Shown one piece after another: positions 1-6,164 of a stretch of 35,040 bases of DNA. The position numbers were made by a program, and so were the translations under genes. The stretch's first letter is position 1, and every line of letters begins with the position of its first letter. The DNA is from Eubacterium sp. (lineage in GTDB: Bacteria > Bacillota > Clostridia > Oscillospirales > Acutalibacteraceae), in assembly GCA_017458975.1 (NCBI GenBank), contig JAFSZK010000091.1, positions 1 through 35,040 of the forward strand, given 5' to 3'. Under the pieces are notes generated by a model. That model searched no databases, was not told the origin of the DNA, and saw only the letters and a program-made list of their open reading frames with translations.

Positions 1-2
1 CG

Positions 3-536
3 TCCCCCGAAAAGTTCAACGCGCTTATTGACGAAGCAAAGCCGGGAATCCCGACTAAAAATCCGGTTCAGGTATTAACCTTCCTGTTAGGACCTTTTAC
101 CAAGCTTACCGATTTACTGGTAAAATATCTAAAGCCGAGTGAAGAGGATATGAAGGACAGGAAGTTCTTTGAAACCTCAACTATTTTAACTATGTATACT
201 ATTGCCGGCGCAATCTGCGCGCTTGCAAATAACGACAGTATCTCAAAGCTCTCCGCTTCATACATCCCCGACGGCGATGTATGTATGGGAATTACGGACG
301 TACTTTACGTTACAATCCGTGTAAGAGACCACAAGCTTGAGCTTATTAAAGAAAAGCCCGACACTCCGAGAGCAATTATGGAATTTAAAACAATCGACCT
401 TGCCAACGGATTGTTTACGGGTACCGCTTCAACCATGGCTGAGCTTTGCGCCGGAAACATCTATATGAGCGGTATGATTAATATGATTGACAATATTAAC
501 CGAATTTTGGACAGAGTTGCTGTCTACTTAGGATAA
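3..536 (+). CDS. SCP2-like (sterol carrier fold) protein, 5' truncated
   Basis: The reading frame is open to the left edge, so the start lies outside the window; about 177 C-terminal residues are visible. The last 100 or so resemble an SCP2-type lipid-binding domain: alternating beta strands (DVLYVTIRVRDHKLELI), then a stretch with a conserved-looking acidic/hydrophobic pattern and a C-terminal helix (NIYMSGMINMIDNINRILDR). SCP2 domains bind acyl chains, sterols or other hydrophobic ligands in the cytoplasm. No signal peptide or clear membrane segment is visible in this part. The gene ends 12 bases before the aminotransferase and is very probably in the same operon. A second protein of the same type closes the operon (3781-4575). 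The family call is by eye and moderately weak; the ligand is unknown. Confidence 0.55.
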   Translation, partial: SPEKFNALIDEAKPGIPTKNPVQVLTFLLGPFTKLTDLLVKYLKPSEEDMKDRKFFETSTILTMYTIAGAICALANNDSISKLSASYIPDGDVCMGITDVLYVTIRVRDHKLELIKEKPDTPRAIMEFKTIDLANGLFTGTASTMAELCAGNIYMSGMINMIDNINRILDRVAVYLG

Positions 537-548
537 GGGGGGAATAGA

Positions 549-1820
549 ATGAGCAAATATCCTGAATATAAACACGATAAGTCAAGAGAATGGTTTGACA
601 GAGCTCTTAACGCTATTCCGTCCGGTATTTACGGACATCTCGGACCTTCCGAGGGACTCTGGCTTCCGATTACAAAATGGCCTCTTATGGGCGACCATGC
701 TAAGGGAACGTATTTCTGGGACGTTGACGGAAACAAGTATCTCGATATGATGTGCGCTTACGGACCCAACGTTCTCGGCTACTGTGACGACGATGTTGAC
801 GCAGCCGCAATGGAACAGCTGCGTATTGGCAACTGTACAACCTCACCGTCTTATAAAATGGTTGAGTGCGCGGAGATGCTTAAGGATACCGTCGCAATGG
901 CTGACTGGGCGTTCTTTATGAAGAACGGTTCGGACGCAACGACCTTCTCGGTTATGGTTGCCCGCGCCCATACGGGAAAGAAAAAGATGATGTTCTTCAA
1001 GGGATATTATCACGGCGATTTCCAGTGGTGTCAGAAGGCTGACTACCCCGGAATCTGTCCTGAAGAGGTTGCTAATAATATTATCGTACCCTGGTTTGAC
1101 CTTGAGGCAATGCAGGAAGCTTATGACGCCTGCGGCGGCGACGTTGCGGGACTTATTGCACAGCCCTATGACCACGGCAATTTCTACGATAACGTTTGCG
1201 CAACTCCCGAGCAGTGGAAAGCGGTAAGAAAATTCTGTGACGACCACGGTATGGTTCTTATCTTTGACGACGTAAGAACGGGCTTCCGTCTTGATATCGC
1301 GGGAAGCGACCATTATTACGGAATTAAGGCTGACCTTATATGCTTCTGTAAAGCGCTTGCAAACGGATATAATATGAGCTCCGTCTGCGGTCAGGAGCAT
1401 ATGAAAAACGCCGCTTCCTCGGTTGTTTATACAGGCTCCTACTGGATGAGCGCAGAGCCGTTTGCCGCTTGTCTTGCATGTATACCTAAAATGAAAAAGC
1501 TTGATATTCCGACAATGTTCAGAGAAAAGGGAATTAAGCTTACCGACGGCTTAAAGGCTGCGGGTAAGGAGCACGGCTTTAATCTTGTTGTTTCGGGTGA
1601 GCCTGCGCTGTTCTATTTAAGAATTGCAAACGACGACAGCTTAATGCTTCATCAGGAGTGGGTTGCTGAGTGCGTTTCAAGAGGACTCTTCCTTGCCTCC
1701 CACCATAACCACTTTATCAACGCTTCGCTTACGGACGACGATATTAAGCTTGCAATTGATATAGCAGAGGATGCCTTCGGCGTAGTTGCTTCAAGGCACC
1801 CGGAAATAGGACTTAAGTAA
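549..1820 (+). CDS. class III PLP aminotransferase, glutamate-1-semialdehyde aminomutase-like
   Basis: 423 residues, a normal length for fold-type I class III aminotransferases. Visible landmarks are the NGSDA phosphate-binding loop (126-130), YYHGD (153-157), the cofactor-binding LIFDDVRTGFR (D240 would hold the pyridine nitrogen) and the Schiff-base lysine in FCKALANGY (K268). This resembles HemL and related aminotransferases, but the usual DEV after the pyridine-binding Asp is DDV, and no other tetrapyrrole gene is nearby, so HemL function is doubtful. The RBS is GGGGGG/GGAAT just upstream of ATG 549. It lies between an SCP2-like gene and split transketolase genes, which suggests it aminates a keto or aldehyde product of the transketolase, or is an aminomutase. 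The substrate is unknown. The enzyme class is secure. Confidence 0.85.
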   Translation: MSKYPEYKHDKSREWFDRALNAIPSGIYGHLGPSEGLWLPITKWPLMGDHAKGTYFWDVDGNKYLDMMCAYGPNVLGYCDDDVDAAAMEQLRIGNCTTSPSYKMVECAEMLKDTVAMADWAFFMKNGSDATTFSVMVARAHTGKKKMMFFKGYYHGDFQWCQKADYPGICPEEVANNIIVPWFDLEAMQEAYDACGGDVAGLIAQPYDHGNFYDNVCATPEQWKAVRKFCDDHGMVLIFDDVRTGFRLDIAGSDHYYGIKADLICFCKALANGYNMSSVCGQEHMKNAASSVVYTGSYWMSAEPFAACLACIPKMKKLDIPTMFREKGIKLTDGLKAAGKEHGFNLVVSGEPALFYLRIANDDSLMLHQEWVAECVSRGLFLASHHNHFINASLTDDDIKLAIDIAEDAFGVVASRHPEIGLK

Positions 1821-1856
1821 TATATTATACCGAAAGGTATTGAAAGGAGTAATTTT

Positions 1857-2750
1857 ATGCCGGCAGATTACAAACCATTTGACAAAGCTGAGTGGTTACG
1901 TCTTGAAAAGAAGGCAGACCAGCTCAGAAGATTAACAATCCAAACCTCAATTTGGGGCGGCTCGGGTCACCTCGGAGGAGCGCTTTCCTGTATGGACGCT
2001 ATGACAATCCTCTATCACCGCTTTATGAAGCTTGACCCCAACGATTCCCAAATGCCTGACAGAGACCGTTTTGTTCTTTCAAAGGGTCACGCTGCAGTAG
2101 GTTATGCTCCGGTGCTCGTTGATTTCGGTTATATGCCCGAAGAGGAGCTTCATATCTTTAATCTTACAGGCGCAAAAATCGGTATGCACCTTGACGCTAA
2201 CAAGGTTAACGGTTGCGACTGTTCAACCGGCTCCCTCGGTCACGGTATCTCTCTTGCAGTGGGCTTTGCTCTTGCAGGAAGGGTTAACGGAATTGATTAT
2301 ATGAACTATGTTATAACAGGCGACGGTGAGATGAACGAGGGCTCAAACTGGGAGGCTGCAATGAGTGCGGCTCAGTTCAAGCTTTCAAATGTAGTTGTAC
2401 TTGTTGATAACAATAAATGTATGATTGACGGCCGCGTTAACGATGAAATGAAGATTGAGCCCGTTGATGAAAAATTCAAGGCTTTCGGCTTTGAGGTTGC
2501 ACGAGTTGACGGACATAATATGAAGGAACTCAACGACGCTATCGAAGCCGCAATTAAGAATCATCAGGACGGCGGCGACAAGCCCTTTGCAATCGTTATG
2601 GATACCTTCAAGGGCGCAGGCGTAGACTTTATGCAGGATAATTATCTGTGGCACTACGGCTCGCTTGACGAAGAGAAAGCCGCTCAGGCAAATGCGTCGC
2701 TTGATAAGTACTATGAAGAACGCGTAGCACGCGCAGAAAAGGAGGCATAA
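1857..2750 (+). CDS. transketolase N-terminal subunit (TPP-binding half)
   Basis: 297 residues, the length of the N-terminal half of split transketolases. It has the GGSGHLGGALS motif near residue 35, DRFVLSKGHAA (70-80), and the thiamine pyrophosphate motif starting at GDGE (155-158) and ending at the NN pair (185-186). The partner half follows after two bases, and together they should make a heterodimeric or heterotetrameric enzyme transferring a two-carbon ketol unit between sugar phosphates, or between related donors and acceptors. Start ATG 1857 is preceded by AAAGGAG. A small hairpin with a GAAA loop (1827-1840) sits just before this RBS. In many Clostridia split transketolase serves the pentose phosphate pathway; the aminotransferase and SCP2 neighbours here hint at a dedicated role, but the standard role cannot be excluded. 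Confidence 0.9.
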   Translation: MPADYKPFDKAEWLRLEKKADQLRRLTIQTSIWGGSGHLGGALSCMDAMTILYHRFMKLDPNDSQMPDRDRFVLSKGHAAVGYAPVLVDFGYMPEEELHIFNLTGAKIGMHLDANKVNGCDCSTGSLGHGISLAVGFALAGRVNGIDYMNYVITGDGEMNEGSNWEAAMSAAQFKLSNVVVLVDNNKCMIDGRVNDEMKIEPVDEKFKAFGFEVARVDGHNMKELNDAIEAAIKNHQDGGDKPFAIVMDTFKGAGVDFMQDNYLWHYGSLDEEKAAQANASLDKYYEERVARAEKEA

Positions 2751-2752
2751 TT

Positions 2753-3763
2753 ATGGGTGGTATGACATATACAATGACCGACACTACAAAGCTTTCAACA
2801 GCTGAGTGCTACGGTATCGCGCTTTGTGAGCTCGGCGAGGAGCATAAGGACGTTGTTGCTCTTACGGCTGACCTTGCCAAATCAACAAAAATCGGTATGT
2901 TCGGCGAGCAGTATCCCGAAAGATTTTTTAACGTAGGTATCGCGGAGCAGAACCTTTTCGGCGTAGCTGCAGGTATGGCTAAAAACGGACTCGTTCCCTT
3001 TGCTTCCACCTTTGCAATTTTTGCTTCCGCACGTTCTCTTGACCAGGTTCATACCGATATCTGTTACCAGAACGTTCCCGTTAAGATTATTGCTACTCAC
3101 GCAGGTACGTCCTTCGGTCAGGCGGGCTCAACCCACCACAGCCTTATTGATATGGCTTGTATGAGAACCCTTCCGAATATGACCGTTATCTGCCCCTGCG
3201 ACGGAAGCGAAACCTACCATGCAGTTAAAGCTGCTTACGATATCCCGGGTCCCGTTTATATCCGTATTAACCGCGGCTTTGACCAGGTTATTTATAAGAA
3301 CGTTGACGATTGTAAGTTCGAGTGGAACAAGGCAAGCGTTATGAACGAAGGAACGGATATTACCGTTATTGCGTGCGGCTCATGCGTATTTGAAGCGATG
3401 CAGGCTGCAAGAATGGTTGAGGCTGACGCAGGTATTAAGGTAAGAGTTATTAATATGCATACAATCAAGCCCGTTGACGAAGAGGCAATTTTAAATGCCG
3501 TTATGGATACCCGCCGTATTATCACGGTTGAGGACCATGAGATTATGGGCGGTCTCGGAAGCGCTGTTGCCGAGGTTGTAGCAAAGAGCGGTAAGGCTTG
3601 CGCGTTCAGAATGCTCGGTCACGATAATGCATTTTCAACAATCGGTCTTCAGGAGGACCTTCTTGCTCTTGCAAAGATTGACGCAAACGGTATTGCCGAA
3701 ACAATCCAAGAGGTTATGCACGCAGACTTTGAAGCAGACGACGCGTGGGATGACGAATTCTAA
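2753..3763 (+). CDS. transketolase C-terminal subunit
   Basis: 336 residues covering the pyrimidine-binding and C-terminal domains of transketolase. The catalytic glutamate that activates the TPP aminopyrimidine is in VGIAEQN (E65). Downstream are GTSFGQAGSTHHSLIDMACM, a region typical of this half, and the C-terminal Rossmann-like part with TVEDHEIMGGLGSAVAE near residue 260. The start is two bases after the stop of the N-terminal subunit, with AAAAGGAGG inside the end of that gene, so the two are translationally linked. Later in-frame ATG codons (2762, 2774) are possible but less well spaced from this RBS. A DXP-synthase-like partner is possible in principle, because this half is similar across transketolase-type enzymes. 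Confidence 0.9.
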   Translation: MGGMTYTMTDTTKLSTAECYGIALCELGEEHKDVVALTADLAKSTKIGMFGEQYPERFFNVGIAEQNLFGVAAGMAKNGLVPFASTFAIFASARSLDQVHTDICYQNVPVKIIATHAGTSFGQAGSTHHSLIDMACMRTLPNMTVICPCDGSETYHAVKAAYDIPGPVYIRINRGFDQVIYKNVDDCKFEWNKASVMNEGTDITVIACGSCVFEAMQAARMVEADAGIKVRVINMHTIKPVDEEAILNAVMDTRRIITVEDHEIMGGLGSAVAEVVAKSGKACAFRMLGHDNAFSTIGLQEDLLALAKIDANGIAETIQEVMHADFEADDAWDDEF

Positions 3764-3780
3764 TCGGAAGGAGTGATATA

Positions 3781-4575
3781 ATGCCAAGCGATGAAGTTCG
3801 TTATACTAATAAGGTATTTATGGCAGGCGCCCTGCCGCTTATGAAAACCATTGCAACGGACGTACCCGAGCTTAAAAAGAAGTTTGAGGGCGTTGACGCA
3901 ATATATCAGGTTTCGGCAAAGGTAAACGCAGAGGATAAAGAGGCGGTTCACTTTATCGTGGAAAACGGTGAGTGGAGCGTAAAGCTCGGCGAATATCTCG
4001 GTCAGAAAAAGATTGACGGTGAGCTTGCTTTTTCCTCAATGGAAAAGATGAACGCCTTTATGAAGGGAAATATGGCAAAGCTTCCTAAAATGAAGATTAA
4101 GTCCTTCGGTAAGTTCTTAAAGTTTATGCAGGTGCTTCTTAAAATGAGCGATTTGCTTAATATGACTGAGCCTCCCGAAGACGAAGCAACCCAGATTCTT
4201 CTTTGTAAGCTGTATTTCTATCTGCTTTCCTCGGGTATTTCCCAGCTTAATAAGCTCGGTCACCCCGCAATCCACGAGTGGACCTTAAAGTCACCCGACC
4301 GCTGCTATCAGTGGGAGGTTGTGGGACATCCCGAATGTACCGCCTATATCCGCATCAAAGCGGGTAAATCAAGAGCGGGCAGAGGAGAATACAAAAGAGC
4401 AAAGCCCTTCTTTAATATGAAATTCGACTGTCCTAAATCTGCGCTTTTAATCCTTCTCGGAATAGGCGATATGTTTGAAATGACTGCTAACCAGCAGCTT
4501 ATGATGGAGGGCGGACCCGAATTCGGAGTTCAAATCGGCGACTATATGATGATTGTCGGCGACCTCGCAAAATAA
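3781..4575 (+). CDS. SCP2-like lipid-binding-fold protein, last gene of the operon
   Basis: 264 residues, no signal peptide. Two stretches look like SCP2-type lobes: an N-terminal one (about residues 40-125), with strands HFIVENGEWSVKLG and a lysine/methionine-rich helical part, and a C-terminal one ending FGVQIGDYMMIVGDLAK. Such proteins bind or present hydrophobic molecules. The centre has cysteine/histidine-containing sequence (KSPDRCYQWEVVGHPEC, about residues 173-189) that I cannot assign. The RBS GGAAGGAG is ideally spaced from ATG 3781, and the gene follows the transketolase subunit after 17 bases. With the first gene of the window it brackets the aminotransferase and transketolase, implying that the pathway substrate or product may be lipid-like. 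Family assignment is by pattern only; the function is not known to me. Confidence 0.55.
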   Translation: MPSDEVRYTNKVFMAGALPLMKTIATDVPELKKKFEGVDAIYQVSAKVNAEDKEAVHFIVENGEWSVKLGEYLGQKKIDGELAFSSMEKMNAFMKGNMAKLPKMKIKSFGKFLKFMQVLLKMSDLLNMTEPPEDEATQILLCKLYFYLLSSGISQLNKLGHPAIHEWTLKSPDRCYQWEVVGHPECTAYIRIKAGKSRAGRGEYKRAKPFFNMKFDCPKSALLILLGIGDMFEMTANQQLMMEGGPEFGVQIGDYMMIVGDLAK

Positions 4576-4594
4576 ACATATATTAAATATTTGT

Positions 4595-4628
4595 TTTGAC
4601 AAATTTTACCTCCTTTCGGAATTATAAT
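4595..4628 (+). promoter_or_regulatory. spoIIG-type promoter: sigma-A hexamers with 21-bp spacer and overlapping Spo0A box
   Basis: A perfect TTGACA (4596-4601) and a perfect TATAAT (4623-4628) are 21 bp apart, too far for an unaided sigma-A promoter. TTTGACAAA (4595-4603) reads TTTGTCAAA on the other strand, matching the Spo0A box TTTGTCRAA and overlapping the -35. The Bacillus subtilis spoIIG promoter is known for a similarly overlong spacer and for activation by phosphorylated Spo0A bound at the -35. That the same logic holds here is inference from this match plus the gene downstream. Confidence 0.75.
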
Positions 4629-4650
4629 GATTTCGAAGGGAGGTATTTTT
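4607..4650 (+). terminator. intrinsic terminator whose 3' arm is the spoIIGA ribosome binding site
   Basis: TACCTCCTTTCG (4607-4618) pairs with CGAAGGGAGGTA (4634-4645), twelve pairs including one G-U, and is followed by TTTTT (4646-4650). It ends the SCP2-transketolase operon. The 3' arm contains the AAGGGAGG that serves spoIIGA, so read-through RNA would hide that ribosome binding site. The spoIIGA promoter's predicted start (about 4635) lies at the beginning of this arm, so the gene's own transcript escapes the hairpin. Confidence 0.8.
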
Positions 4651-5451
4651 ATTGTTATCTATGTTGACGTACTCTTTATTGTTAACTTTTTTATAACCTT
4701 TTTACTTCTTGAGCTTACCGCAAGGTTTACAAAAAGAAATGCAAATACATTAAGGCTTGTAATTGCTTGTGTCGTCGGAGGACTGGCTTCTCTTACAATT
4801 CTGCTTGATATTCCCGACGCTGTTTCATATATTATGAAAGTCGCCGAGGGCGCGGTAATTCTTCTTTTTGCTTTCAGGTTTTACCGTGTAAAAAGCTTTT
4901 TTATTACGCTTTTTGTATTTTTGTTTTCAAGCCTTATTTTTCTCGGCGTGATTACGGGGATATATTTTATTACAAAGAGCGGAAGAATTGCAATCAGGGG
5001 CGGAAATGTTTATTTTGATTTAAATGCAAGAGAGCTTCTGGCAGGCGCTTTTCTGGCGTACATAACAGCCTGCGTTATTGTCAGAATATACAACAAGCGC
5101 CTTTCAAAGGGCGAGGTGTATATGCTCAGAATTGAAAAAGGAGAAAGGAGCAAAACGCTTTTTGCGCTGGGTGATACGGGAAATCGCCTTCGCGAGCCTT
5201 TTTCAAACAGTAGCGTTATAGTTGCCGATAAGGAGGCTTTAAGCGGTATGTACGACGAAAGCTCTCTTCGCGTTATTCCCGCTTCAACCGTAAGCTCAAA
5301 CGGCGTTTTATACGCCTTTAAGACGGACAGGGTGTGCGTAAAATGCGAAAGCGGAGACGAGGTTATCGAGGGCGCCTATATTGCGCTTTGCGACGGTATA
5401 AAAGAGGAGGATTATTCAGCGGTTATTAATCCGGAAATTCTTTGTGTTTAG
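4651..5451 (+). CDS. spoIIGA: sigma-E processing aspartic peptidase SpoIIGA (probable ATT start)
   Basis: Membrane protease that cleaves the pro-sequence from pro-sigma-E in the mother cell after the asymmetric division septum forms. The N-terminal half is a row of hydrophobic helices (five or so up to about residue 145). The C-terminal half is a soluble aspartic-protease-like domain with GDTGN, whose Asp (residue 175 from the ATT start) is the expected catalytic residue. An ATG exists at 4627, but it lies in the -10 box of the promoter and has no RBS. GGAGG at 4639-4643 is correctly placed for ATT 4651, which gives an N-terminus (VIYVDVLFIVNF) like that of known SpoIIGA. About 266 residues. 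sigE follows after 8 bases. Confidence 0.88.
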   Translation: MVIYVDVLFIVNFFITFLLLELTARFTKRNANTLRLVIACVVGGLASLTILLDIPDAVSYIMKVAEGAVILLFAFRFYRVKSFFITLFVFLFSSLIFLGVITGIYFITKSGRIAIRGGNVYFDLNARELLAGAFLAYITACVIVRIYNKRLSKGEVYMLRIEKGERSKTLFALGDTGNRLREPFSNSSVIVADKEALSGMYDESSLRVIPASTVSSNGVLYAFKTDRVCVKCESGDEVIEGAYIALCDGIKEEDYSAVINPEILCV

Positions 5452-5459
5452 GTGATATA

Positions 5460-6164
5460 ATGATAAGGCTTTTAAACTATATAATTAATAAAATTCGCTT
5501 TAAGCAGTACTGCTTTTATATTAACGGACCCGAAACTCTGCCGCCTCCGCTTTCAAAGGAGGATGAGGAGAGAATTATGGCGGAGCTGAGAAACGGTGAT
5601 GAGAGCCACAGAAATCTGCTTGTAGAGCACAATCTGAGGCTCGTTGTGTATATTGCAAAAAAGTATGAGTGCCCGTCCGCCACCGCCGAGGATTTGGTAT
5701 CAATCGGTACAATCGGGCTTATGAAGGCGGTAAAAACCTTTGACGCTAATAAGAATATTAAGCTTGCTACCTATGCGTCAAGATGTATTGAAAATGAAAT
5801 TCTTATGTATCTGCGCAAGGCGTCAAACTCAAACGTTATGCTCTCCTTTGACGAGCCGCTTTCTACCGACTGGGACGGAAACGAGCTGACCCTTCGCGAC
5901 GTGCTCGGCAGCGAAGCCGACGCCGTGAGCCGTGAAATTGAATACGACGATGAAAAAAGACTTTTGCGCCGGGTTGTAAGCTGTCTTCCCGAAAAGGAAA
6001 AGAGTATTATGTATATGCGCTTCGGACTCGGCGGTGAAAAGGCTCATACCCAAAAGGAGCTTGCCGACGAAATGGGCATTTCACAGTCCTATATTTCCCG
6101 CCTTGAAAAGCGTATATTAAAAAAGATAAAAGCCGAAATGGAAAAGCATCTTACAGCAAGGTAG
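5460..6164 (+). CDS. sigE: RNA polymerase sporulation sigma factor SigE precursor
   Basis: 234 residues, close to the Bacillus protein. The first 20 or so residues (MIRLLNYIINKI, then basic) are the membrane-associated pro-sequence, and processing is expected around FYINGPETLPPPLSKEDEE, which closely matches the known cleavage region. Sigma region 2 is clear (LRLVVYIAKKYE, DLVSIGTIGLMKA, KLATYASRCIENEILMYLRK). Region 4 has the helix-turn-helix ELADEMGISQSYISRLEKR near the end. It directs early mother-cell transcription. Start ATG 5460 is chosen over an in-frame TTG at 5442 because AGGTGA (5450-5455) precedes it and the family begins here. sigG, which often follows sigE, is not the next gene in this genome. 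Confidence 0.96.
   Translation: MIRLLNYIINKIRFKQYCFYINGPETLPPPLSKEDEERIMAELRNGDESHRNLLVEHNLRLVVYIAKKYECPSATAEDLVSIGTIGLMKAVKTFDANKNIKLATYASRCIENEILMYLRKASNSNVMLSFDEPLSTDWDGNELTLRDVLGSEADAVSREIEYDDEKRLLRRVVSCLPEKEKSIMYMRFGLGGEKAHTQKELADEMGISQSYISRLEKRILKKIKAEMEKHLTAR

What the first reader, a model, noticed from the sequence alone, without database searches (positions are those of the whole stretch)
1..4575. Uncharacterised operon: two SCP2-like proteins around a class III aminotransferase and a split transketolase
The gene set is unusual. A lipid-binding-fold protein comes first and last, with a GSA aminomutase-like PLP enzyme and a heterodimeric transketolase between, all spaced by 2 to 36 bases. 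A reasonable hypothesis is that the transketolase makes a ketol or ketose product that the aminotransferase aminates, on a hydrophobic or lipid-linked substrate carried by the SCP2-like proteins. The alternative is a plain pentose-phosphate transketolase with unrelated neighbours. The operon starts upstream of the window.
Basis: partly seen in the sequence, partly recalled or inferred. Interest (0 to 1): 0.72.

Follow-up and report, generated by a model that had tools for sequence, protein, structure and literature searches.

The report
Transketolase–aminotransferase route to sphingosine-like lipids
Gut bacteria related to Eubacterium coprostanoligenes carry a conserved five-gene cassette in which a split transketolase with an altered active site and an aminotransferase sit beside two proteins predicted to have a lipid-carrier fold, and which would likely make (or, run backwards, break down) sphingosine-like lipids without serine palmitoyltransferase, the usual first enzyme.

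The parts
3..536 (+). SCP2a: C-terminal 177 aa of a protein that is 254 aa in E. coprostanoligenes; predicted tandem pair of SCP2 modules; cut by the contig start
549..1820 (+). class III PLP aminotransferase (423 aa), nearest to FumI; catalytic Lys268 conserved
   Evidence: PF00202 127.5 bits; best solved relative aminopentol aminotransferase 6hbs, 272.9 bits versus 153 for the best GSA aminomutase; Lys in 67 of 67 rows longer than 380 aa
1857..2750 (+). transketolase N-terminal (ThDP-binding) subunit, 297 aa
   Evidence: PF00456 153.2 bits; GDG motif in 71 of 71 rows and active-site histidines kept
2753..3763 (+). transketolase C-terminal (Pyr + TKC) subunit, 336 aa; positions equivalent to E. 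coli R358 and D469 are both Ala; catalytic Glu kept
   Evidence: PF02779/PF02780; residue counts
3781..4575 (+). SCP2b: 264 aa, predicted tandem pair of SCP2 modules, a paralogue of SCP2a

Best explanation
The cassette likely encodes a two-step pathway in which the split transketolase would join a two-carbon ketol unit to a long-chain aldehyde and the aminotransferase would then aminate the resulting 2-ketone to a sphingosine-like 2-amino-1,3-diol, each enzyme predicted to be served by its own SCP2-fold lipid carrier. Shown by calls: the genes; their conserved linkage in two separable halves (SCP2a + aminotransferase; transketolase + SCP2b); Ala at the positions of E. coli R358 and D469; FumI as closest solved aminotransferase; no detected alpha-oxoamine synthase (the serine palmitoyltransferase family) in the own genome; and a separate split transketolase. 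Predicted: the SCP2 fold of both outer proteins. Inferred: the lipid nature of the aldehyde, the products, alanine as amino donor (by analogy with FumI), the one-carrier-per-enzyme pairing and the direction. I lean to synthesis, because in the breakdown direction the acceptor would be a hydroxylated sugar phosphate, for which the lost residues are the usual ligands (recalled). I put the chemistry in either direction at about 0.57, of which synthesis is about 0.35.
For: Gene order: of 80 named loci 65 canonical, 4 permuted, 10 with fewer genes where under 4.1 kb is held upstream of SCP2b, 1 (L114) with only the transketolase-SCP2b half. In the class of G445, 8 of the 11 matching genomes have all five genes in order, 2 are cut by a contig end and 1 (G218) has the two halves on two contigs, at 27-37% SCP2 identity to the named set. 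Transketolase site: the D469 position is Ala in 73 of 73 and the R358 position is Ala in 72 of 73 rows (the exception, L113, is a shortened ORF that aligns poorly there). Cassette copies from other lineages have Ala at D469 and A, G, S, K or T at R358, whereas the other split transketolases that I fetched have Asp in 10 of 10 and Arg in the 8 of 8 that cover the site (three remoter hits and two stand-alone copies not counted there, see full report). E. coli D469A raises the propionaldehyde/glycolaldehyde activity ratio from 0.04 to 0.20, and D469 variants accept linear aliphatic aldehydes (PMC3657141, passages); R358 and D469 are among the positions whose mutation improved activity on aromatic aldehydes (PMC7661550, passages). 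FumI removes the C2 amino group of hydrolysed fumonisin B1 with pyruvate as acceptor (PMC2933618, passages); the window enzyme is 36.3% identical to it over 397 columns. Both SCP2 models match lipid-binding SCP2 structures. No alpha-oxoamine synthase in the own genome, with the control ringing in 11 of 14 genomes; in 19 genus genomes 7 have only weak matches, 17.5-31.8 bits. Coupled transketolase-transaminase reactions making 2-amino-polyols are established in biocatalysis (PMC5813273, passages).
Against: No substrate is shown. Three phosphate-site residues (S385, H461, R520 equivalents) are kept, and the genus's other split transketolase even has Ala where the cassette enzyme has the S385-type Ser (7 of 8), so a phosphorylated partner is still likely. 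In the genus neither a LuxC-type acyl reductase (1 weak hit, 21.8 bits, in 20 genomes) nor a DUF2229 protein, the family of plasmalogen synthases as I recall it, was found (0 of 20, though 8 of 8 other cassette or half-cassette genomes have one), so the source of a fatty aldehyde is unknown. SCP2-like domains also occur in Eis-type acetyltransferases, which appear among the weaker fold matches, so the fold alone does not prove lipid binding. SCP2a + aminotransferase occurs without a cassette-type transketolase in G277 (whole genome) and without one nearby in G579 and G690. In G218 the transketolase half has Arg at R358. Two other cassette genomes (G217, G363) do have strong alpha-oxoamine synthase hits. 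FumI works in the deaminating direction. No acyltransferase or head-group gene is consistently linked.
Confidence: 0.35

Rival explanations
1. Same chemistry run the other way: the cassette breaks down or detoxifies free sphingoid bases. The aminotransferase deaminates the base to a 2-ketone and the transketolase cleaves off the two-carbon head onto a sugar phosphate, releasing a fatty aldehyde.
For: The closest solved relative FumI is a deaminating, detoxifying enzyme. SCP2a + aminotransferase stands without the transketolase beside a permease-like gene in G277, G579 and G690, and in G771 the aminotransferase has a 134-aa ORF and an alanine-dehydrogenase-like gene before it (only the G277 permease was profiled). 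A TetR-like gene is close downstream of the cassette in G217, G363 and G555 (Pfam for G217 only). LuxC and DUF2229 proteins are absent or nearly so in the genus. [quoted passage not shown]
Against: The acceptor would be an alpha-hydroxy sugar phosphate, for which R358 and D469 are the usual ligands (recalled) and both are lost. No ceramidase in the genus (0 of 20); no conserved transporter, aldehyde dehydrogenase or regulator in the cassette.
Confidence: 0.22
2. The transketolase uses a small non-hydroxylated aldehyde, for example formaldehyde giving dihydroxyacetone, which the aminotransferase turns into serinol or a similar short amino alcohol; the SCP2-fold proteins are scaffolds or bind an acylated later product.
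For: Loss of D469 only suggests that the acceptor lacks a 2-hydroxyl, not that it is long. A methanol-to-serinol cascade through dihydroxyacetone transamination has been engineered (PMC12666128, title and abstract in search listing).
Against: Two SCP2-fold proteins, one tied to each enzyme half, are hard to explain for a small polar product; FumI similarity points to long chains.
Confidence: 0.15
3. The aminotransferase acts on an amino-sugar or cell-wall intermediate and the transketolase on its keto-sugar; the SCP2 proteins bind an isoprenoid-linked form.
For: In one distant family a MurT-like gene lies near the cassette on its upstream side in five genomes (G445, G188, G471, G477, G472; Pfam for G445 only), with DUF362 and PIG-L genes nearby in G445 and G469 (Pfam for G469).
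Against: None of these neighbours recurs in the 80 named loci (by clusters not named one by one); the aminotransferase is nearer FumI than the listed sugar aminotransferases (272.9 versus at most 106.8 bits).
Confidence: 0.08
4. Plain pentose-phosphate transketolase with unrelated neighbours.
For: Catalytic residues, ThDP motif and three phosphate-site residues are kept.
Against: Another split transketolase of 40-46% identity is present in 20 of 20 genus genomes searched (in G030 and G031 with stop codons in the scored frame, in G035 cut at a contig start); four genus members, 92-97% complete, lack the cassette copy; the acceptor-site residues differ; linkage is conserved.
Confidence: 0.03

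Closest known systems
FumI, aminopentol (hydrolysed fumonisin B1) aminotransferase, PDB 6hbs
   Same: Class III fold, best solved relative (272.9 bits, 36.3% identity over 397 columns); acts on the C2 amine of a long-chain sphinganine analogue
   Different: FumI belongs to a fumonisin-degrading gene cluster and works in deamination; the substrate of the window enzyme is untested
Split transketolase of Carboxydothermus hydrogenoformans, PDB 6yaj/6yak
   Same: Two-chain transketolase, closest solved relative of both subunits (273.5 and 210.4 bits)
   Different: Keeps the Arg and Asp that the cassette enzyme lacks (alignment); characterised as a transketolase active on a range of aldehydes (PMC7661550, abstract and passages)
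Engineered transketolase-transaminase cascades (for example to 2-amino-1,3,4-butanetriol)
   Same: Same two reactions in sequence giving 2-amino-polyols; D469 variants widen the acceptor to aliphatic aldehydes
   Different: Man-made combinations; no carrier proteins; short chains
Serine palmitoyltransferase route to sphingoid bases, including the PKS-linked SgaAB variant (PMC12134224, passages)
   Same: Proposed product class (long-chain 2-amino-1,3-diol)
   Different: Uses an alpha-oxoamine synthase on serine plus an acyl thioester and then a ketone reductase; no such synthase detected in the own genome
UbiJ-type SCP2 proteins of ubiquinone synthesis (role recalled)
   Same: SCP2-fold proteins that serve enzymes acting on a lipid; UbiJ-SCP2 is among the fold matches
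   Different: Single SCP2 module; here each protein looks like two modules and each is tied to one enzyme half
PigD/PigE of prodigiosin synthesis (recalled, no call)
   Same: A ThDP enzyme plus an aminotransferase acting on a fatty aldehyde
   Different: PigD is a different ThDP family and its product cyclises

Membership tests
Transketolase (split, two-chain) | Transketolase_N and Transket_pyr/Transketolase_C domains over the curated cut-offs | tested here: met
Transketolase (split, two-chain) | Catalytic Glu, ThDP GDG-N motif and active-site His kept | tested here: met
   Glu in 72 of 73 (one X); GDG and Asn 71 of 71, four His 67, 69, 71 and 71 of 71 with only gaps otherwise
Sugar-phosphate transketolase of the pentose phosphate pathway | Arg (E. 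coli R358) and Asp (E. coli D469) in the acceptor site | tested here: not met
   Ala at both; Ser, His and Arg of the phosphate site are kept
Class III aminotransferase | PF00202 over cut-off and catalytic Lys | tested here: met
   127.5 bits versus cut-off 30.5; Lys in 67 of 67 rows over 380 aa (6 shorter rows of 73 left out)
Glutamate-1-semialdehyde aminomutase | HemL equivalog cut-off (TIGR00713, 527.3 bits) | tested here: not met
   175.3 bits
GntE guanitoxin transaminase | NF041362 cut-off (525 bits) | tested here: not met
   207 bits
FumI-type long-chain amine aminotransferase | Activity on 2-amino-3-hydroxy long-chain substrates | not testable with these tools
   sequence similarity only
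SCP2 family (PF02036) | Pfam SCP2 profile over cut-off | tested here: not met
   No Pfam hit for the window proteins at 1e-3 nor an SCP2 hit for E. coprostanoligenes SCP2a at E up to 1; a divergent positional homologue passes (28.4 bits versus 21.3)
SCP2 fold | Structural match over a whole SCP2 domain | tested here: met
SCP2 lipid carriers | Binding of a lipid in the cavity | not testable with these tools
   no ligand data
Canonical sphingoid-base synthesis | Alpha-oxoamine synthase (serine palmitoyltransferase family) in the genome | tested here: not met
   TIGR01822: 0 matches in the own genome, about 90% complete; 7 of 19 genus genomes with weak matches, at most 31.8 bits, 0 over cut-off

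The most novel reading that the evidence does not exclude
A natural, serine-palmitoyltransferase-free pathway to sphingoid bases in gut Clostridia: a transketolase condenses a two-carbon ketol with a fatty aldehyde and an aminotransferase finishes the 2-amino-1,3-diol, with a dedicated double-SCP2 lipid carrier for each step.
Probability: 0.3. Interest if true: 0.92.

Novelty: new variant of a known kind. Interest (0 to 1): 0.72.

Why it matters
Gut sphingolipids are tied to host immunity and metabolism, and their bacterial making is ascribed to serine palmitoyltransferase (PMC12134224, passages). A second, unrelated route to (or from) sphingoid bases in common, mostly uncultured gut Clostridia would change where such lipids are looked for. 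One clostridial gut species, Flavonifractor plautii, is reported to make phytosphingosine, measured by UPLC-MS/MS (PMC11914097, abstract, passages and sections 9 and 24), with no gene for it named in the parts I read; whether it has this cassette was not tested. The pathway would also be a natural counterpart of an engineered biocatalytic cascade, with a transketolase already altered at the very positions that engineers change for non-natural aldehydes.

Tried and rejected
Pentose-phosphate housekeeping role: judged very unlikely. GSA aminomutase: rejected. Missing conserved upstream genes: none seen, SCP2a is the first conserved gene. Shared pathway neighbours: none conserved beyond the five genes across the named loci. 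Ceramidase as a pointer to sphingolipid degradation: 0 of 20 genus genomes, 5 of 13 others, control 0 of 14; the one near the cassette (G484, L206) scores under the cut-off in pieces and over it as a whole protein (38.3 versus 32.1 bits); not used as evidence. DUF2229 and LuxC as aldehyde sources: 0 and 1 (weak) of 20 in the genus. Plasmalogen as aldehyde source: lost cholesterol-reducing Eubacterium strains needed plasmenylethanolamine, but E. coprostanoligenes ATCC 51222 grows without it (PMC8468837, passages), so no link is claimed. Whether named Oscillospiraceae such as Flavonifractor carry SCP2b: the last protein search listed 120 of 1302 proteins, most without a name, and no name shown was Flavonifractor; this settles nothing. 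Literature: (open PMC papers, listings only) showed no paper whose title or abstract start describes this gene set or a transketolase route to sphingoid bases.
Full report
What is there. The window begins at base 1 of contig C44 of a 1.85 Mb, 117-contig genome, about 90% complete. Five ORFs on + fill 3-4575 with gaps of 12, 36, 2 and 17 bases. Pfam identifies a class III aminotransferase, a Transketolase_N subunit and a Transket_pyr/Transketolase_C subunit; the first and last proteins hit nothing at E 1e-3. The cultured relative in my search is Eubacterium coprostanoligenes ATCC 51222 (L071), where the first protein is 254 aa and the upstream gene, about 380 bases away, is unrelated. By that length the window lacks the first 77 codons of SCP2a.

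Conservation among named records. A scan of genome contigs with a 17-row alignment of the last protein found 275 confirmed places, of which the best 80 were returned. By tblastn of the five proteins, 65 of the 80 have all five genes in the window's order, 4 have all five in a permuted order, 10 have fewer genes and hold under 4.1 kb upstream of SCP2b, and 1 (L114) shows only transketolase plus SCP2b in 16.8 kb. The ORF map shows the permutation as TKn-TKc-SCP2b-SCP2a-aminotransferase in L097-L100 (only L099 is printed). Flanking genes differ between lineages.

Conservation in whole genomes. Of 60 relatives (own genome included) 27 have the aminotransferase at E 1e-40: the own genome and 26 of 36 others of the genus, and none of the 23 genomes of other families of the order. 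Among genus genomes at least 90% complete it is 20 of 24. In an even sample of the phylum 12 of 398 match at E 1e-60; five of these (E about 1e-64, 31-32% identity) are a different aminotransferase with no cassette gene beside it in the stretches held, about 7-8 kb on each side for four of them (less where a contig ends) and 1.5 kb for G106. In the class of G445, 11 of 97 genomes match at 1e-90: 8 have all five genes in order (G445, G471, G477, G472, G484, G524, G494, G491), G188 and G469 are cut by a contig end, and G218 has SCP2a + aminotransferase on one contig and TKn + TKc + SCP2b on another. In the order of G277, 5 of 246 match: G555 has the five-gene cassette, G277, G579 and G690 have SCP2a + aminotransferase, and G771 has the aminotransferase with a 134-aa ORF that matches nothing. 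G277 has no cassette-type transketolase in its genome (best hit 32% identity); the other three were looked at only around the gene.

Two halves. The permutation, the two contigs of G218, the SCP2a-aminotransferase pair alone in G277 and the transketolase-SCP2b pair in L114 all show that the cassette is made of two units, each an enzyme with its own SCP2-like protein. That each SCP2 protein serves its neighbouring enzyme is an inference from this. SCP2a and SCP2b are paralogues: queries with one hit the other at 22-27% identity in several loci.

Aminotransferase. Its best solved relative is the aminopentol aminotransferase 6hbs, 272.9 bits, well ahead of the best GSA aminomutase at 153 bits; identity is 36.3% over 397 columns. 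It misses the curated cut-offs for HemL and for GntE by far. The catalytic lysine is present in 67 of 67 rows longer than 380 aa. FumI moves the C2 amino group of hydrolysed fumonisin B1 to pyruvate (PMC2933618, passages); fumonisins are classed as sphinganine-analogue mycotoxins (PMC7711896, title and abstract in search listing).

Transketolase. The genome has another split transketolase on C108 (192.5 bits) and a 618-aa weaker hit, probably DXS. All 20 genus genomes searched have this other split transketolase (in G030 and G031 with stop codons in the scored frame, in G035 cut at a contig start), and four of them (G007, G028, G031, G035, 92-97% complete) lack the cassette copy. By alignment to human and C. 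hydrogenoformans transketolase (E. coli and human residue numbers and roles are recalled, in part borne out), the cassette enzyme keeps the catalytic Glu and the Ser, His and Arg of the phosphate site but has Ala at the R358 position in 72 of 73 and Ala at the D469 position in 73 of 73. The exception at R358 is a shortened ORF that aligns poorly (L113). In other lineages the D469 position is still Ala, and R358 is A, G, S, K or T in whole cassettes; the split-up copy in G218 has Arg and Ala, and a stand-alone copy in G188 has Arg and Gly. The other split transketolases whose loci I held have Asp in 10 of 10 and Arg in 8 of 8 that cover the site (several rows there are one gene held in two loci; three remoter hits, L003, L181 and L189, are of other ThDP families and were left out of the count; one search lists further such genes that were not fetched). 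Against a simple loss of phosphate binding, 7 of those 8 have Ala at S385 where the cassette enzyme has Ser. In E. coli, D469A shifts the propionaldehyde/glycolaldehyde activity ratio from 0.04 to 0.20, and the propionaldehyde product named there is 1,3-dihydroxypentan-2-one (PMC3657141, passages).

Mechanism. Joining the parts: an aldehyde without 2-hydroxyl + a ketol donor gives a 1,3-dihydroxyalkan-2-one (transketolase); ketone + amino donor gives a 2-aminoalkane-1,3-diol (aminotransferase). With a C16 aldehyde this is C18 sphinganine. The two reactions in series are known in biocatalysis with short chains (PMC5813273, passages). The own genome has no alpha-oxoamine synthase hit, while the control rang in 11 of 14 genomes; of 19 genus genomes 7 have weak matches of 17.5-31.8 bits, which I take for other fold-type I enzymes, and 12 none; two cassette genomes outside the genus, G217 and G363, have strong hits of 397-403 bits. 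So in the genus a sphingoid base could hardly come by the usual route.

Direction. For synthesis: acceptor site opened for the lipid aldehyde rather than for sugars, strong retention in the genus, no conserved transporter or regulator, no ceramidase. For breakdown: FumI's direction, aminotransferase units without transketolase, alanine-dehydrogenase-like and permease-like neighbours in the G277 group, a TetR-like gene downstream in three genomes, no detected aldehyde-making enzyme of two families in the genus, and the antimicrobial action of free bases (search listing). I lean to synthesis, weakly.

Limits. Novelty is judged from listings of open PMC papers only.

Noticed in passing
window 4627-6164: SpoIIGA (PF03419) and a sigma-factor-like ORF follow the cassette 51 bases downstream on the same strand; a similar pair of ORF clusters follows it in only a few relatives (such as L049 and L050), so it is probably a chance neighbour.
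   Followed up: partly
L097-L100: The cassette is permuted to TKn-TKc-SCP2b-SCP2a-aminotransferase in these gut and rumen MAGs, which splits it into two natural halves.
   Followed up: yes
L146 and L186 (G218): The two halves lie on two different contigs of one genome; the transketolase there has Arg at R358 but Ala at the D469 position.
   Followed up: yes
L143, L211, L214 (G277, G579, G690): Genomes of 6.4-6.8 Mb carry SCP2a + aminotransferase beside a permease-like gene and a large regulator-like gene, with no cassette transketolase or separate SCP2b nearby.
   Followed up: partly
L213:7364-10185 (G771): An alanine-dehydrogenase-like gene, a 134-aa ORF without Pfam match and the aminotransferase in a row; would fit alanine/pyruvate as amino partner.
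   Followed up: no
L206:14582-15931 (G484): A protein with a neutral-ceramidase-family match (PF04734, 38.3 bits) lies a few genes from the cassette; no hit to that family was found in the 20 genus genomes searched.
   Followed up: partly
L144, L145, L203-L205: In one distant family a MurT-like gene lies on the upstream side of the cassette, with DUF362 and PIG-L genes downstream in some genomes.
   Followed up: no
L187:8647-12283 (G188): A stand-alone split transketolase with Arg at R358 and Gly at the D469 position sits beside alcohol-dehydrogenase-like and short-chain-dehydrogenase-like genes; another variant of the acceptor site.
   Followed up: no
L071:9215-9547 and G000:C58:22622-22876: A separate canonical 110-aa SCP2 protein (PF02036, 49-52 bits) is present in the genus, in E. 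coprostanoligenes just downstream of the cassette on the other strand.
   Followed up: no
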